NCBI GenBank assembly: GCA_014762505.1
Contig: JABURS010000035.1
Location: 1 to 64,000, forward strand
DNA from: Chromatiales bacterium
GTDB taxonomy: Bacteria > Pseudomonadota > Gammaproteobacteria > SpSt-1174
Reading direction: 5' to 3'
DNA: 64,000 nucleotides
In this document: positions 1-19,690 of the stretch, in pieces
How positions within the stretch are numbered: position 1 is the first letter of the stretch
How the letters are laid out: the number at the start of each line of letters is the position of its first letter
Program-made: the position numbers and the translations under genes
The notes under the pieces: model-generated
Databases searched by the model: none
Told to the model about the DNA's origin: nothing
Seen by the model: the letters and a program-made list of their open reading frames with translations, nothing else

Positions 1-95
1 TCACCATCCTCGCCCGCAAGCTCGCCCGTATCGCCTTCGCCATCCTCAAAAACGGAGCCGACTATGTGCCGCGAAAACCTTGTCTTGCGACATAG
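1..95 (+). CDS. IS110-family transposase, C-terminal fragment (cut by window edge)
   Basis: An open frame enters from the left edge and ends at TAG (93-95), giving 30 residues. They include the stretch ARKLARIAFAILKNG followed by DYVPR, which resembles the C-terminal tail of IS110-family (DEDD/serine) transposases. Only the tail is visible, so no catalytic residue can be checked. Four bases after the stop, CTCCTACAG (99-107) matches the right end of the REP-like elements found elsewhere in this window. The element therefore seems to end almost at its stop codon and to sit inside a REP, as IS110 relatives such as IS621 do. Assignment rests on tail similarity and context. Confidence 0.55.
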   Translation, partial: TILARKLARIAFAILKNGADYVPRKPCLAT

Positions 96-98
96 AAT

Positions 99-186
99 CT
101 CCTACAGCCAATACCAAGTTTCGTAGGAGCGCCGCGAGGCGCGATCAGGGGCGGCACTCCGCCCAAACATGGCCATCGCAGCTCGC
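99..186. repeat. REP-like element, type A, with disrupted half next to the IS110 tail
   Basis: CTCCTACAG at 99-107 is a lone right half. A full left half, starting GTAGGAGCGCCGCGAGGCG, runs from 123 and is followed by an inverted partner containing GGCCATCGCAGCTCGCGC at about 170-187. The same left and right halves recur at 19327, 19461 and 19595, and the left half recurs in reverse at 37411-37432. The two halves can pair through GTAGGAG and CTCCTAC. Confidence 0.75.
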
Positions 187-273: not shown

Positions 274-2157
274 TCAATGAACCACCCCGGGCACCACCTC
301 TGCCGATACTGCCTGCGGGGGTTCCTGGTATTCCGGCACCAGCGTCCGCAGCCGTGCCTTGAGGGTGTCCACGTCACGCTCCTGGCAGGCGCCGAGCAGC
401 TCGGCCAGCTCCTCGCGCAGCACCGTCCACTCGGTCTTGCGGGCCTCGGCGAGCAGAATCTTGGGATGGCTGGTGCCGATGAGGTTCTCCGAGCCGTGGA
501 ACAGCTCCTCGTAGAGCTTCTCACCGGGCCGCAGGCCGATGTACTCGATGGCGATGTCCACCTCCGGCTCACGGCCGGCCAGGCGGATCATCTGCCGGGC
601 CAGGTCCACGATCTTCACCGGCTCACCCATGTCCAGCACGAAGATCTCGCCACCCTTGCCCATGGCCGCCGCCTGCAGGATCAGGCTCACGGCCTCGGGG
701 ATGGTCATGAAATAGCGGGTGATCTCCGGATGCGTGACGGTGATCGGCCCGCCCGCCTCGATCTGCTTGCGGAAGAGCGGCACCACCGAGCCCGCCGAGC
801 CCAGCACGTTGCCAAACCGCGTGGTGATGAAGGCCGTACTCGCACGCTCGTTCAGCGTCTGACAATAGATCTCGGCCGTACGCTTGCTGGCACCCATCAC
901 GTTGGTGGGGTTCACCGCCTTGTCGGTGGACACCAGCAGGAACTTGCGCACCCCGTATTCCACCGCCAGGTCCGCCACCACGCGGGTGCCGAAGACATTC
1001 GTCTTCAGCCCCTCGGCCGGATTCTCCTCCACCAGCGGCACATGCTTGTAGGCCGCCGCATGCAGCACTACGTCCGGACGGAAGGTCTCGAAGATCCAGC
1101 GCATGCGCGCCTCGTCACGCACGTCGCCCAGCAGGGCCGTGACCTGCCGATCACCCTTGTACTGATTAATCTCCTGGTCGATCTGGTACAGATTGAACTC
1201 ACCGTGATCCACCATGATCAGCTGCGCGATCTCGTAGCCACACACCTGCCGACACAGCTCCGAACCGATCGAGCCACCGGCACCCGTCACCAGCACGCGC
1301 ATACCATCCAGAAAACCATGGATACTGGAATCATCCAGCTGAATGGCCTGGCGCCCCAGCAGGTCGTCGATACGGATCTCGCGCAGACGCGTGACATCGA
1401 TATCGCCATGGGCCAGCTCGGCCAGTGAGGGCAAGGTCACACAGCGCAACTCGAGGCTGGCACAGGTCGCCACCACGGGGCGGATCAGGGCCGAACTGGC
1501 AGATGGCATGGCGATCAGCACCACATCCACACCCTCACGCCGGGCCACTGCCTCCAGATCACGCAATGCACCCAGAACGCGCACTCCCTGCAATTCCTTG
1601 CCTTTCTTGCCCGGATCGTCGTCTAGAAACCCTACCGGATGGTATCCATCTCGACGCAACAGGTCGCGGACCAGCATCTCTCCAGCAGAACCCGCTCCAA
1701 GTATCAGCGCACGATTCGTCGCCTCGCGCGTCAACTTCAGCTGATGATCCTTGAACCAGCGATAGAGCAGGCGCGGCCCCGTCAGCCCCATCAAGAGAAA
1801 CACCGGATAGAGCAGAATCACTGAACGCGGTACGCCTTGCAGATGCAACAGCAGAAAATGCACAGCAAAGGTTGCGCCTGCACCCACCGCCACCGCCTTC
1901 AATATGCGCACCAGGTCCGGGATGGAGGCGAAGCGCCAGATGCCGCGATAAAGACCGAACAGCCAGAAACAGGCAAGCTGCACAGGCAAGGCAATCGACA
2001 TGATCAACAAGACACCAGCAACCTGGCCCTGTGGCATCACCTCAAAATTGAAACGAACCAGGTAGGCCAGCAATAACGCCAGCGGAACCCAGGCCGCATC
2101 ATGGAGCAAGGCCAAGAATCGCTTCAGAGTAGCCCAGCGTTGCTTTTGTTTGCGCAT
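274..2157 (-). CDS. Membrane-bound nucleotide-sugar 4,6-dehydratase (CapD/WbpM/PglF type)
   Basis: A 627-residue protein with four predicted transmembrane segments in residues 15-125. A first Rossmann motif (GAGSAGEM, about 154-161) starts a CoA-binding-like domain. A second, complete SDR domain starts at VTGAGGSIGSE (290-300). The catalytic region reads STDKAVNPTNVMGASK (410-425), so Tyr of the usual YxxxK is Met421. This substitution is typical of the long UDP-GlcNAc 4,6-dehydratases WbpM and PglF. The likely product is a UDP-4-keto-6-deoxy sugar for the first residue of the repeat unit. It is last in the minus-strand operon, 45 bp after the initiating transferase gene. ATG has AGGAA immediately upstream. 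Length matches the family. Confidence 0.93.
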   Translation of the reverse strand: MRKQKQRWATLKRFLALLHDAAWVPLALLLAYLVRFNFEVMPQGQVAGVLLIMSIALPVQLACFWLFGLYRGIWRFASIPDLVRILKAVAVGAGATFAVHFLLLHLQGVPRSVILLYPVFLLMGLTGPRLLYRWFKDHQLKLTREATNRALILGAGSAGEMLVRDLLRRDGYHPVGFLDDDPGKKGKELQGVRVLGALRDLEAVARREGVDVVLIAMPSASSALIRPVVATCASLELRCVTLPSLAELAHGDIDVTRLREIRIDDLLGRQAIQLDDSSIHGFLDGMRVLVTGAGGSIGSELCRQVCGYEIAQLIMVDHGEFNLYQIDQEINQYKGDRQVTALLGDVRDEARMRWIFETFRPDVVLHAAAYKHVPLVEENPAEGLKTNVFGTRVVADLAVEYGVRKFLLVSTDKAVNPTNVMGASKRTAEIYCQTLNERASTAFITTRFGNVLGSAGSVVPLFRKQIEAGGPITVTHPEITRYFMTIPEAVSLILQAAAMGKGGEIFVLDMGEPVKIVDLARQMIRLAGREPEVDIAIEYIGLRPGEKLYEELFHGSENLIGTSHPKILLAEARKTEWTVLREELAELLGACQERDVDTLKARLRTLVPEYQEPPQAVSAEVVPGVVH

Positions 2158-2202: not shown

Positions 2203-2754
2203 TTACCGTACGATACGGTCACCAGAACCCTTTCCAATCACAGTCATGATGATGTAGCCGAAATAGGACTTGAGTGTGAGATTCGCCAGCATCGCCTGGT
2301 CAGTTTCAGCCAACAACACCGGGGTGGACATATCGATGCCCTTCACCTGCGCCAGCCCGGTAATCCCTGGCCGCGCACCAAAGACACCCCGACGCGCACG
2401 CTCCTCGATCAATTCGTCCTGGCTGAAGAGACAGGGTCTGGGGCCTACCAGGCTCATCTCGCCCTTCAGCACGTTCCACAGCTGGGGCAGCTCGTCCAGC
2501 TTGGTACGACGCAAAAACCGCCCGAACCGGGTAACAGCACCCGCATCCGCCAGATGCGTCGCCACCGATGCCGTATCCGGGCGCATGGTGCGAAACTTCA
2601 CCAGCACAAAGGGCTTCTGATGCCGCCCCACACGCTCCTGACGAAACAACGGCGAGCCGGTATCAAGCAACCCGATAAGCCACAGCAGCGCCAACACCGG
2701 CAGACCTACGACCAGCCCCAGCAGCGCGAAGAGCACATCGAAGAAACGAATCAA
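2203..2754 (-). CDS. Small initiating sugar-phosphate transferase (PglC-like phosphoglycosyl transferase)
   Basis: A 183-residue monotopic phosphoglycosyl transferase (bacterial sugar transferase family). An N-terminal hydrophobic re-entrant segment (2-31) is followed by KFRTM (53-57), the catalytic Asp-Glu dyad in TKLDELPQ (D87/E88) and GEMSLVGPRP (98-107). It transfers a sugar phosphate from a UDP-sugar to undecaprenyl phosphate at the inner face of the membrane. The frame stays open upstream to 3108, but that part translates REP repeats. The start is taken as TTG at 2754 because GGAGG (2760-2764 on the complement) lies 5 nt upstream and the protein then begins like its family. The neighbouring dehydratase and SDR probably make its substrate. 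Confidence 0.88.
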   Translation of the reverse strand: MIRFFDVLFALLGLVVGLPVLALLWLIGLLDTGSPLFRQERVGRHQKPFVLVKFRTMRPDTASVATHLADAGAVTRFGRFLRRTKLDELPQLWNVLKGEMSLVGPRPCLFSQDELIEERARRGVFGARPGITGLAQVKGIDMSTPVLLAETDQAMLANLTLKSYFGYIIMTVIGKGSGDRIVR

Positions 2755-2836
2755 GGAAACCTCCAAACACACCCCATAGACGCCAGGGCCGAGAGGCGCC
2801 AGGCAGCACCGCGGGCACCGAGCCCCCGCGGCGAAT

Positions 2837-2909
2837 GTAGGAGCCGAGCCCTCTCGGCGATTAATACCCCGGTGCCAAAACCCTATCGGCCAGGGGGCTG
2901 GCCTCCTAC
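2837..2909. repeat. REP-like element, type B (copy 2)
   Basis: An inverted repeat from GTAGGAGCCGAGCCCTCTC to GGGGGCTGGCCTCCTAC in the gap between the SDR and sugar-transferase genes. A more decayed relative may lie just before it (about 2785-2835, rich in CCGCGGGC-like palindromes). Confidence 0.8.
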
Positions 2910-2980
2910 AAGGGCAACACATAGGGCGGCCCACGGCCGCCGTCAGGGTAAGAAGATCCAATGCACCAAACACCGACACT

Positions 2981-3050
2981 GTAGGAGCCGAGCCCTCTCG
3001 GCGATTAGCCCCGGCGCCAAACCCTATCAAACAGAGGGCTGGCCTCCTAC
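2981..3050. repeat. REP-like element, type B (copy 3), overlapping the SDR gene end
   Basis: A 70-bp element with the same ends as the other type B copies. Its right half supplies the last eight sense codons or so and the stop (3027-3029) of the minus-strand SDR gene, giving the C-terminal residues GVGGQPSV. Confidence 0.8.
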
Positions 3051-4004
3051 GCCAAACGGCGCCACCGCCCGTCTCAGACCCTCGTCCACGCTCACCGGCG
3101 GCTCCCAACCCAGCAGATCCCGCGTCTTGGAGATATCCACCTGCAACGACCCCAGCAGCCGTCTTGCCACATCCCGTTTACCCAACAGGATAGCACCGGC
3201 CTGCAAGGCCCATACCGGCACAGGCAACAATCGCGTCGGCTTGCCCATTGCCCTGCCAATCCGCTCAAGCAACTCAGTCGTAGACAAATCCTCGCCATCA
3301 GAAGCCAGAAACACCTGATTGGCAGCCGCCGGATGGTCAAGACAAGTCACAATGAGATCCATGAGGTTGTCCAACCCCACCAGGCTGCGCCGATTCTGCC
3401 GCACTGCCCCCAGGGGCAAGGGCACACCCTTGGCCACCCAGCGTAGCAGCGTAGCGAAATTTCCCTTCACGCCCGGACCGTACACCAGCGGCGGGCGGAT
3501 GATCACCACCTCCATGCCGGTTTCCCTTGCCAGCTCGAGCAATCCCTGCTCCGCCTCCCATTTCGAGAGTCCATAGGCATCTTCTGGAGTCGGCGGGTCA
3601 TCCGCATGAAACGGGCGCCCGCTTTCTGTTTGCTCGCCATTCACCTTAATCGAACTGATAAAGACAAAACGACGAACTCCAGCTTCTGCAGCCTGTCGCG
3701 CCAGATTGAGGGTTCCGTGAACATTCGTGAAGCGGAACTGTCCCAACGGGTCTGGAGCCTCCTCCTTCATTATATGCACGCGAGCCGCCGCATGAACCAC
3801 TACAGAAACACCAGAAAGCGCCCCGCGCCAATCAGAGTCCGGCGTGAGCCCCGGGACCAACACCGTTGCAATATCACGGGTAACCCCCATGCTACCGATG
3901 CGGGTCGCGACGCGTGGGTTCCACTTCCCATCTAATAGAATCCGCGAAGACAAGGCACGCCCGACGAACCCAGTGCCACCTGTAATCAAGACATTGTGAT
4001 GCAA
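3027..4004 (-). CDS. NAD-dependent epimerase/reductase (extended SDR, WbpV-like)
   Basis: A 325-residue extended SDR. The N-terminal nucleotide-binding motif is TGGTGFVG (8-15), FISSIK lies at 115-120, and the catalytic YGLSK is Y144/K148. The family includes WbpV and other UDP-4-keto-sugar reductases or 4-epimerases. Beside a WbpM-type dehydratase and an initiating transferase it probably finishes a UDP-6-deoxy-N-acetyl sugar such as FucNAc or QuiNAc. The exact sugar cannot be read from sequence. The start appears to be TTG with a GGAG about 11 nt upstream, so it is less certain. The last residues come from a REP-like element, which suggests the original stop was replaced. Confidence 0.87.
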   Translation of the reverse strand: MHHNVLITGGTGFVGRALSSRILLDGKWNPRVATRIGSMGVTRDIATVLVPGLTPDSDWRGALSGVSVVVHAAARVHIMKEEAPDPLGQFRFTNVHGTLNLARQAAEAGVRRFVFISSIKVNGEQTESGRPFHADDPPTPEDAYGLSKWEAEQGLLELARETGMEVVIIRPPLVYGPGVKGNFATLLRWVAKGVPLPLGAVRQNRRSLVGLDNLMDLIVTCLDHPAAANQVFLASDGEDLSTTELLERIGRAMGKPTRLLPVPVWALQAGAILLGKRDVARRLLGSLQVDISKTRDLLGWEPPVSVDEGLRRAVAPFGVGGQPSV

Positions 4005-6430: not shown

Positions 6431-7432
6431 ATGAAAAAGAAACTCTTCATACTTCTCGGCACGTATAACGGATCAAAATACGTTCGAGAACAAATCAAGA
6501 GCATTCAATATCAGACGCACGAAGATTGGGTCTTATTGGTACGTGATGACGGCTCATCCGACGAGACGGTCGAGCTTGTCGACGCTCTCGCCCAGGACGA
6601 TCCACGGATAACCATCCTGGACGACGAGCACGGTAACGTCGGCGCATCACGTAACTTTTCCCTGTTGGCACAGGAAGCACTTCGCCAAGACGCTGACTAT
6701 GTCATGTTTTGCGATCAAGATGACATCTGGATGCATGATAAAGTTTTCGTGTCTCTCAATAAGATCAAGCAAGCTGAATCCGCGGCAAAACCCAACACAC
6801 CCGTGCTGGTTCATAGCGACCTGACCGTAACTGATGAAAAACTCTGCCTCATTCATAGCTCGTTTCTCAAGATGCAACACATCAGACATGAAGCGCGCCA
6901 TCCCCTCGAAACATTACTTGTACAGAATTTTGTCACAGGCTGCACCTGCATCGCCAACAAGCATCTTGTAAAGATAGCCGAGCCGGTGCCTACCGAAGCC
7001 CTTATGCATGATTGGTGGTATGCCCTTGTGGCCGCACACACAGGAATTATCGATTATATACCCGTGCCGACACTGCTATATCGGCAGCACGGGCACAACA
7101 CAATCGGGGCCAGCAATTACTGGTCAAGGATAAACCCCTTCACCACTCGACTAGCTCAAAAGCTCTCCAAAAACGAAAGAAACTATATTCAATCGATAGG
7201 ACAAGCTTGCGCACTCGCCAATCGATTTACATACACAGACACACGGGAACAAGAAATAGCCCGCAACTACTGCACAGTCCTAAAGTTTTCTCCCTGGTGG
7301 AGACGAATTCTATTCCTCGTAAAATACCGCATCCGGCGCCAGAACCCGCTCTTGAATTTTGTTTTATATTTGAGGGCTGCACGAACGAAACCAAGAAACG
7401 ACTCTTGCGACCTCAGCAATACGAATAATTAG
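6431..7432 (+). CDS. Glycosyltransferase family 2, opposite strand to the rest of the locus
   Basis: A 333-residue GT-A enzyme with LLGTYNGSKYVREQI at the N terminus, VRDDGSSDET (38-47) and the metal-binding MFCDQDDIWMHDK (DQDD 95-98). CDQDDxW is common in rhamnosyl- and related glycosyltransferases of O-antigen loci. The frame extends 24 codons upstream to ATG 6359. ATG 6431 is preferred because homologues begin with this MKK...TYNG strand and AGGT lies about 9 nt upstream. It is the only plus-strand gene of the polysaccharide cluster, AT-rich, and divergent from wzy, with convergent transcription toward the methyltransferase. It was probably acquired separately from its neighbours. Confidence 0.85.
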   Translation: MKKKLFILLGTYNGSKYVREQIKSIQYQTHEDWVLLVRDDGSSDETVELVDALAQDDPRITILDDEHGNVGASRNFSLLAQEALRQDADYVMFCDQDDIWMHDKVFVSLNKIKQAESAAKPNTPVLVHSDLTVTDEKLCLIHSSFLKMQHIRHEARHPLETLLVQNFVTGCTCIANKHLVKIAEPVPTEALMHDWWYALVAAHTGIIDYIPVPTLLYRQHGHNTIGASNYWSRINPFTTRLAQKLSKNERNYIQSIGQACALANRFTYTDTREQEIARNYCTVLKFSPWWRRILFLVKYRIRRQNPLLNFVLYLRAARTKPRNDSCDLSNTNN

Positions 7433-19326: not shown

Positions 19327-19690
19327 GTAGGAGCGCCGCGAGGCGCGATTGCGGGGGTGGCGGCTTCGTTCCGGCATGGCCATCGCAGCTGGCGCAGCTC
19401 CTACAGCGGTAGCCGGCACCTGCCGTGAGGTGGGGGGTCAGGAGCAGGCATCCCCCCACCGTAGGAGCGCCGCGAGGCGCGATTGGGGGGGTGGCGGCTT
19501 CGTTCCGGCATGGCCATCGCAGCTGGCGCAGCTCCTACAGCGGTAGCCGGCACCTGCCGTGAGGTGGGGGGTCAGGAGCAGGCATCCCCCCACCGTAGGA
19601 GCGCCGCGAGGCGCGATTGGGGGTGGTGGCCTCCTTCCGGCATGGCCATCGCAGCTGGCGCAGCTCCTGCAGCGGTAGCCGGCACCCTGC
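19327..19690 (+). repeat. 134-bp tandem repeat, about 2.7 copies, built around a type A REP-like element
   Basis: Copies start at 19327, 19461 and 19595, exactly 134 bp apart. Each carries the GTAGGAGCGCCGCGAGGCG left half, then GGCATGGCCATCGCAGCTGG and a right half ending AGCTCCTAC, followed by a spacer with CGGTAGCCGGCACC. Copies 1 and 2 are nearly identical; copy 3 has diverged and its spacer is truncated near 19690. With the flanking heptamers it fills the 602-bp gap between rpsF and rlmB, in which no gene is supported. Confidence 0.9.

What the first reader, a model, noticed from the sequence alone, without database searches (positions are those of the whole stretch)
1..186. IS110-family element ending inside a REP-like palindrome
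The transposase stop (95) is followed after three bases by CTCCTACAG (99-107), the outer end of a type A REP right half with no left half beside it. This is what insertion into a REP would leave. IS110 relatives such as IS621 target REP sequences through a bridge RNA, with a CT core; the CT at 99-100 could be that core. The short 3' end fits the IS110 group, in which the bridge RNA is upstream of the transposase, outside this window.
Basis: partly seen in the sequence, partly recalled or inferred. Interest (0 to 1): 0.6.

Follow-up and report, generated by a model that had tools for sequence, protein, structure and literature searches.

The report
REP-targeting IS110 element, cut by contig end
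The window begins with the last tenth of a jumping gene of the IS110 kind that has spliced itself into a repeated hairpin sequence, very probably steered there by its own guide RNA; this is a clear natural example of a recently discovered mechanism rather than a new one.

Summary
Positions 3-95 are the last 30 codons of an IS110-family transposase. AAT (96-98) is the element's whole non-coding right end, and CTCCTAC (99-105) is the outer tip of a palindromic REP unit. The window is the start of contig C35, so the left part is missing, but the same genome supplies it. Seven contig ends carry this right end next to CTCCTAC. Six others carry one shared 69-nt left end (CTTGTATG...), each next to a REP unit lacking exactly that CTCCTAC. 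Rejoining left and right flanks at CT rebuilds intact REP units; four left/right combinations match uninterrupted copies in the same arrays at 92-97%. The window's own left partner is unresolved. Full-length relatives (1159-1183 bp) encode PF01548+PF02371 recombinases homologous to IS621/ISCro4 and a ~190-nt left-end RNA with IS621-like architecture. Its right target guide equals the reverse complement of the right flank in all ten elements tested, over three target variants. Its left guide matches its own target better than shuffled targets (p about 1e-5). Within this genome the occupied REP arms fit the guide better than 174 unoccupied arms (p = 0.0025). Verdict: a new member of a known kind (bridge-RNA-guided, REP-targeting IS110, like IS621 and ISPpu9/10).

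The parts
3..95 (+). C-terminal 30 codons (TILARKLARIAFAILKNGADYVPRKPCLAT) and stop of an IS110-family transposase; 5' part lies beyond the contig end
   Evidence: Open frame; aligns with the C-terminus of full relatives carrying PF01548+PF02371, e.g. VILARKLARIAFALLKNQSTYQP; too short for a Pfam hit alone
96..98 (+). AAT, the entire non-coding right end after the stop; ACATAGAAT (90-98) is the left-donor half in the circular form
   Evidence: Shared by 7 right ends in this genome and by relatives
99..100 (+). CT core dinucleotide at the right boundary
   Evidence: CT also at the left boundary (REP-CT-TGTATG) of six left ends; one CT remains when flanks are rejoined
99..105 (+). CTCCTAC, outer tip of the interrupted REP (right target, including the core)
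   Evidence: Same 7 bp next to all 7 right ends; missing from the REP pairs at all 6 left ends
123..186 (+). Next, degenerate REP pair (GTAGGAGCGCC...CATCGCAGCTCGCGCAG without a terminal CTCCTAC), spaced as in a REP array
   Evidence: Sequence; similar units elsewhere in the genome
202..272 (.). Intact REP pair (arms 202-226 and 248-272); on the minus strand its left arm reads GGCTCGG|CTCCTAC, the same target as at left ends C4s, C16e and C22e
19327..19404 (+). Intact REP pair ending GGCGCAG|CTCCTAC, the unoccupied form of the target interrupted at left ends C16s and C22s
19461..19538 (+). Second intact REP pair of the same type, in tandem

Best explanation
Positions 1-98 are the 3' end of one of at least seven copies of an IS110-group insertion sequence (IS621/IS492 type). 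It inserts, in one orientation, at the CT of ...GCT/CCTAC at the edge of the genome's REP pairs. Inferred mechanism: the excised circle (junction ACATAGAAT-CT-TGTATG) expresses a left-end bridge RNA. [quoted passage not shown] Its donor loop pairs with the junction, and the recombinase joins target and donor at CT. Shown here: boundaries, duplicated CT core, REP target, reconstructed empty sites, and guide-target covariation in relatives. Inferred: transcription, RNA binding and catalysis in this organism.
For: Seven right ends and six left ends in the same genome, with REP remnants on both sides. Rejoined flanks C16e|C9s, C22e|C17s, C4s|C24s and C43e|C14e match uninterrupted copies at 97, 94, 94 and 92% across the junction. 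Full relatives of 1159-1183 bp have a ~190-nt left end, an RE of a few bases and PF01548+PF02371; PDB hits are ISCro4 (E = 4e-19) and IS621 (E = 5e-16), with the catalytic E, D, D and S columns aligned. Left-end RNA: TBL/DBL-like structure with 92% of cells paired against 33-44% when slid, and 13 pairs with two-sided changes. Right guide equals the reverse complement of the right target 7/7 in all 10 elements, three variants: GTAGGAG/CTCCTAC, GTGGGAG/CTCCCAC, AGCCGAG/CTCGGCT. Left guide versus own target p = 1e-5, collapsed set p = 2.8e-6, flexible register p = 5e-6. Same-genus LE holds GTAGGAG at the right-guide position. Occupied arms in this genome beat 174 free arms (p = 0.0025). Own 5' hairpin z = -3.3. 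Pairing rules from PMC11208158 and PMC11208160.
Against: The transposase body and the right half of this element's own guide RNA are not readable (no PF02371/PF01548 hit in this genome; eight short contigs are masked). The window's own left partner is not identified. Left-guide matches are imperfect: own guide AGCTTGG differs from GGCTCGG at position 1 with a wobble at 5, and from GGCGCAG at positions 1 and 4. Thio142, Thio176 and G274 fit only with a one-base register shift. No Rfam family matches. No expression or transposition data.
Confidence: 0.93

Rival explanations
1. The IS110 element targets the REP through protein recognition of the palindrome (hairpin or sequence); the guide resemblance is incidental.
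For: All targets are palindromic, and for ISPpu9/10 the whole REP is conserved around the insertion site (PMC1525189).
Against: The right guide tracks the right target through three variants and the left guide tracks its own target better than shuffled ones. G274's element enters a different position of a different REP and its guide changes accordingly. Homologous IS621 is RNA-guided (PMC11208160).
Confidence: 0.05
2. CTCCTAC belongs to the IS right end itself and is not target DNA.
For: It is invariant next to all right ends found in this genome.
Against: 174 CTCCTAC arms exist without the IS in 1.1 Mb of this genome. In relatives the bases after CT change with the host REP: CTCCCAC, CTCGGCTC. 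The left flanks lack exactly this tip, and rejoining restores it.
Confidence: 0.02
3. The repeated contig ends are an assembly artefact that brings an IS tail next to REP sequence.
For: All copies sit at contig ends, and the collapsed interior is not readable.
Against: The same junction occurs inside contigs of other assemblies with complete elements (L120, L122, L142, L174, L191), at different loci and in different genera.
Confidence: 0.01

Closest known systems
IS621 (E. coli; IS110 group, bridge RNA)
   Same: CT core, donor right side beginning TGTAT by my recollection of the IS621 junction, long left end with 5' hairpin and two guide loops, very short right end, REP target, homologous recombinase with DEDD + Ser.
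   Different: Different REP and target: IS621 uses ATCAGGC-CT-AC (PMC11208160), here GGCTCGG-CT-CCTAC or GGCGCAG-CT-CCTAC. Relatives' recombinases are only remote homologues of IS621 (E = 8e-19 and 5e-16). Right guide pairs over 7 nt.
ISPpu9 / ISPpu10 (Pseudomonas putida KT2440)
   Same: IS110-family elements, 7 copies each, all inside REP sequences at one position with a 2-bp (AG/CT) repeat (PMC1525189, PMC8450116).
   Different: Sequences not compared here; ISPpu9 has an antisense RNA and a 3' sRNA (Asr9, Ssr9) not examined in this element.
ISPa11 / ISEc21 seekRNA systems (IS1111 and IS110 types)
   Same: RNA from the non-coding region carries matches to both target strands; ISPa11 also targets REPs (PMC11187229).
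   Different: ISPa11 is an IS1111 element with the RNA downstream of the transposase; here the RNA is upstream.
ISCro4 (PDB 9t56)
   Same: Closest solved recombinase by sequence to the full relatives.
   Different: Target and guide RNA not compared here.

Membership tests
IS110 family, IS110 group | DEDD (PF01548) plus PF02371 recombinase with catalytic Ser | tested here: inconclusive
   Met in full relatives; only 30 C-terminal residues of the window's own protein are readable
IS110 family, IS110 group | Long non-coding left end, very short right end | tested here: met
   RE is 3 bp; relatives' LE ~190-200 nt before the start codon; own LE at least 69 nt without coding signal
IS110 family, IS110 group | Scarless insertion at a short core, core present at both ends | tested here: met
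   CT at both boundaries, one CT in rejoined sites
IS110 family, IS110 group | Circular intermediate | not testable with these tools
   Needs PCR or reads across the RE-LE junction
Bridge-RNA system | 5' stem-loop plus target- and donor-binding loops in the LE | tested here: met
   Consensus fold and pair counts in 9 relatives; own LE shows the 5' hairpin, z = -3.3
Bridge-RNA system | Left target guide matches the left target (bottom-strand pairing) | tested here: met
   Permutation p about 1e-5 over 12 elements; own guide fits occupied arms better than free arms; three elements need a 1-nt shift
Bridge-RNA system | Right target guide complementary to the right target top strand | tested here: met
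   7/7 in 10 of 10 elements, three variants; same-genus G001 has GTAGGAG; own RNA not readable that far
Bridge-RNA system | Donor guides match the element's own ends | tested here: inconclusive
   GGAATC ... GGCAAG in the LE against AGAATC|CTTG ends; L199 has GGGATC with end AGGATC; read by eye only
Bridge-RNA system | Promoter re-created at the RE-LE junction | tested here: inconclusive
   TTGTCT-17-TATGTT, 8 of 12 consensus bases, in own junction; TTGACC-17-TATGTT in L119/L122/L199; absent in L191
[quoted passage not shown]
   7/7 right ends and 6/6 left ends
REP / REPIN | Abundant extragenic palindromes, often in pairs, with a Y1 (RAYT-type) transposase in the genome | tested here: met
   181 CTCCTAC arms in 1.1 Mb, 174 of them without the IS; six pairs in the window; Y1_Tnp at C16:6549-6881 next to REP units; mobilisation not shown

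The most novel reading that the evidence does not exclude
One guide RNA exploits two REP classes of its host through G-U wobble. All six occupied arms pair with the guide AGCUUGG at positions 2, 3, 5, 6 and 7 (32 of 174 free arms do), and half of the occupied arms belong to the rare GCGCAG class. In this family the left guide would then tolerate mismatches at positions 1 and 4, and element lineages would re-tune both guides to each new host's REP.
Probability: 0.35. Interest if true: 0.45.

Novelty: new member of a known kind. Interest (0 to 1): 0.33.

Why it matters
It extends RNA-guided, REP-targeting IS110 elements to a Thioalkalivibrio-like lineage and links one right-end signature (ACATAGAAT-CT) across Pseudomonas, Thioalkalivibrio, Guyparkeria and Sedimenticola. 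The set gives natural guide-target pairs, including three right-target variants and an in-genome test of which REP arms are chosen. These are useful for learning specificity rules of bridge recombinases (7-nt right guide, wobble tolerance).

Tried and rejected
PF02371 and PF01548 searches of the own genome found nothing, because the element interior is not in readable contigs. Synteny of the window's right flank in the two nearest relatives gave no match, so the window's left partner stays open; C16s|C35s and C22s|C35s resemble array units at only 80-81%. Plasmid and viral collections gave no close full relatives. Rfam gave only chance-level hits. Of 67 genome hits to the 17-mer right end, I judge 12 (Bacteroidales, Bacilli, cyanobacteria, unrelated contexts) to be chance, since about 30 are expected at random in 257 Gb; the other 55 lie in gammaproteobacterial contigs, most with the same IS context. 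The pattern N[GA]CN[TC][GA][GA] (p = 4e-5) was set after seeing the data; the simple whole-guide score, fixed before the census, gives p = 0.0025.

Full report
What the sequence shows. The window is the beginning of contig C35 of a 2.77-Mb, 43-contig genome. Frame 3-95 is open from the contig edge to TAG 93-95 and encodes TILARKLARIAFAILKNGADYVPRKPCLAT. AAT follows, then CTCCTACAG (99-107). CTCCTAC is the edge of a palindromic repeat: whole pairs GTAGGAG-N40-70-CTCCTAC occur six times in the window and in none of 100 shuffles.

Why the window starts there. A search of the own genome with the first 180 bases found seven contig ends with the same 105 bp. I fetched the ends of all contigs. Seven ends begin with the same 55 bases and run ...ACATAGAAT|CTCCTAC before diverging. 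Six other ends share a 69-nt sequence that, turned round, reads CTTGTATGTTGTGCCCCGACAGGCCAGAAAGGGCTTGTCGGGGTGGAGGGACGAGCTTGGCATCTGGCC and is preceded in every case by a REP pair that stops just before CTCCTAC. This is the left end of the same element. The assembly broke at every copy. The interior should be about 1.11 kb by my arithmetic from the relatives' length; a masked contig of 1114 bp (C39) has that length, but its content cannot be read.

Empty sites. The genome's REP pairs often lie in tandem arrays, so uninterrupted neighbours serve as empty sites. I joined every left flank to every right flank at CT and compared the result with the own genome. C16e|C9s matches at 97% over 139 bp, C22e|C17s at 94% over 124, C4s|C24s at 94% over 125 and C43e|C14e at 92% over 120, each across the junction. 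One CT is present in the empty site and one at each boundary of the element. The window's right end (C35s) pairs about equally poorly with C16s and C22s (80-81%), so its own left half is not assigned. Intact targets are also in the window: GGCGCAG|CTCCTAC ends REP pairs at 19327-19404 and 19461-19538, and GGCTCGG|CTCCTAC is on the minus strand of the pair at 202-272.

Complete relatives. The 17-mer GACATAGAATCTCCTAC was searched in the species genomes. I judge 55 of 67 hits, in Pseudomonas, Thioalkalivibrio, Guyparkeria, Sedimenticola and related gammaproteobacteria, to be real. Complete elements of 1159-1183 bp came from L119, L120, L122, L142, L174, L176 and L191; two more diverged complete elements came from a protein search (L196, L199). 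Their proteins carry PF01548 and PF02371 (tested on two) and match ISCro4 (9t56) and IS621 (8wt6) with the catalytic Glu, Asp, Asp and Ser columns aligned. The IS621 numbering and the essential residues are from PMC11208158.

The guide RNA. In IS621 the left target guide pairs with the bottom strand at target positions 1-9 and the right target guide with the top strand from position 8 (PMC11208158). In the relatives, the left end after the 5' hairpin reads GGAGGGAC-[left guide]-TCTGG...CAGAC-[right guide]-CGTCCC, then a second loop with GATAAGGAATC and GGCAAGCC. A consensus fold of nine sequences places both guides on opposite sides of one internal loop. With the structure as I edited it, 92% of cells pair, against 33-44% for slid versions, and 13 of 32 pairs have changes on both sides. 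With nine partly related sequences this is good but not overwhelming support.

Guide against target. The right guide is the reverse complement of the right flank over 7/7 bases in all ten elements in which both can be read, and it changes with the target: GTAGGAG with CTCCTAC, GTGGGAG with CTCCCAC, AGCCGAG with CTCGGCT. The left guide fits its own target better than targets of other elements (12 elements, p = 1e-5; nine collapsed lineages, exact p = 2.8e-6), also when a one-base shift is allowed (p = 5e-6). Three elements fit only with that shift, which I cannot explain. In L199 the end AGGATC is mirrored by GGGATC in the second loop, as expected of a donor guide, but this is a reading by eye.

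This genome's own element. Only the 5' hairpin (z = -3.3) and the left guide AGCTTGG are readable. Occupied arms are GGCTCGG (three), GGCGCAG (two) and TGCGCAG (one). Their mean score against the guide is 4.75 compared with 3.26 for 174 unoccupied CTCCTAC arms in 1.1 Mb (p = 0.0025). The commonest arm, GGCTGGC, and the common TGCAGCG/TGCGGCG arms are not used at any of the six left ends. The same-genus genome G001 carries the left end through the right guide, GTAGGAG. In the circle the ends give TTGTCT-17-TATGTT, 8 of 12 consensus promoter bases, as IS621 does (PMC11208158), but one relative (L191) lacks it.

Comparison with the known. IS621 in E. coli inserts in REPs by a bridge RNA (PMC11208160). 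ISPpu9, ISPpu10, ISPa11 and ISRm19 are IS110-family elements inside REPs, with a 2-bp repeat for ISPpu9/10 (PMC1525189, PMC8450116), and natural re-targeting has been described (PMC11187229). The element here is a new member of this kind. It differs in host, target and guide sequence, not in principle.

Limits. Nothing here shows transcription, binding or transposition. The transposase body and most of the guide RNA of this particular element are inferred from relatives (G001 for the left end; other genera for the rest).

Noticed in passing
G000:C16:6549-6881 (L204): Y1_Tnp (PF01797, E = 3e-15) 168-aa frame with REP units close by at 6955-7080: candidate RAYT for these REP pairs.
   Followed up: partly
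L199 (G274) 1261-2500: A distant relative inserted at a different place of a Pseudomonas-type REP (GCATGGG-CT-CGGCTCTAC) with a matching right guide GAGCCGAG: natural re-targeting.
   Followed up: yes
L118 (G262), minus strand from 1700: Decayed second copy: left end and guide kept (AGCTTCG against target AGCTGCG), transposase frame broken.
   Followed up: partly
L142, L176, L199: Left guide fits the target only with a one-base register shift although the right guide fixes the CT; unexplained.
   Followed up: partly
Contig ends C23s/C29e/C41s/C41e and C8e/C23e/C26e/C32e of G000: Two further shared ends...GGGTTTTTCAAC[AG]GCCTGCTAG then unique DNA: probably the two ends of another multi-copy IS.
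   Followed up: no
Contig ends C5e/C11e/C33s/C37s/C43s of G000: Shared end TCAAGCAGGCAAGTG...GGGGAAGCTTACG followed by different DNA: a third multi-copy element.
   Followed up: no
G000 contigs C1, C2, C3, C7, C12, C20, C25, C39 and start of C27: Read as N in the fetched sequence; C39 (1114 bp) has the length predicted for the collapsed interior of this IS.
   Followed up: no
window 2203-3108, minus strand: The listed 301-aa sugar-transferase-like frame begins inside REP pairs (2837-3050); its true start is probably further downstream.
   Followed up: no
window 274-2157, minus strand: Next to the IS: a 627-aa nucleotide-sugar epimerase/dehydratase of the polysaccharide-biosynthesis type (by sequence reading only); its region has no DNA match in the two nearest relatives.
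   Followed up: no
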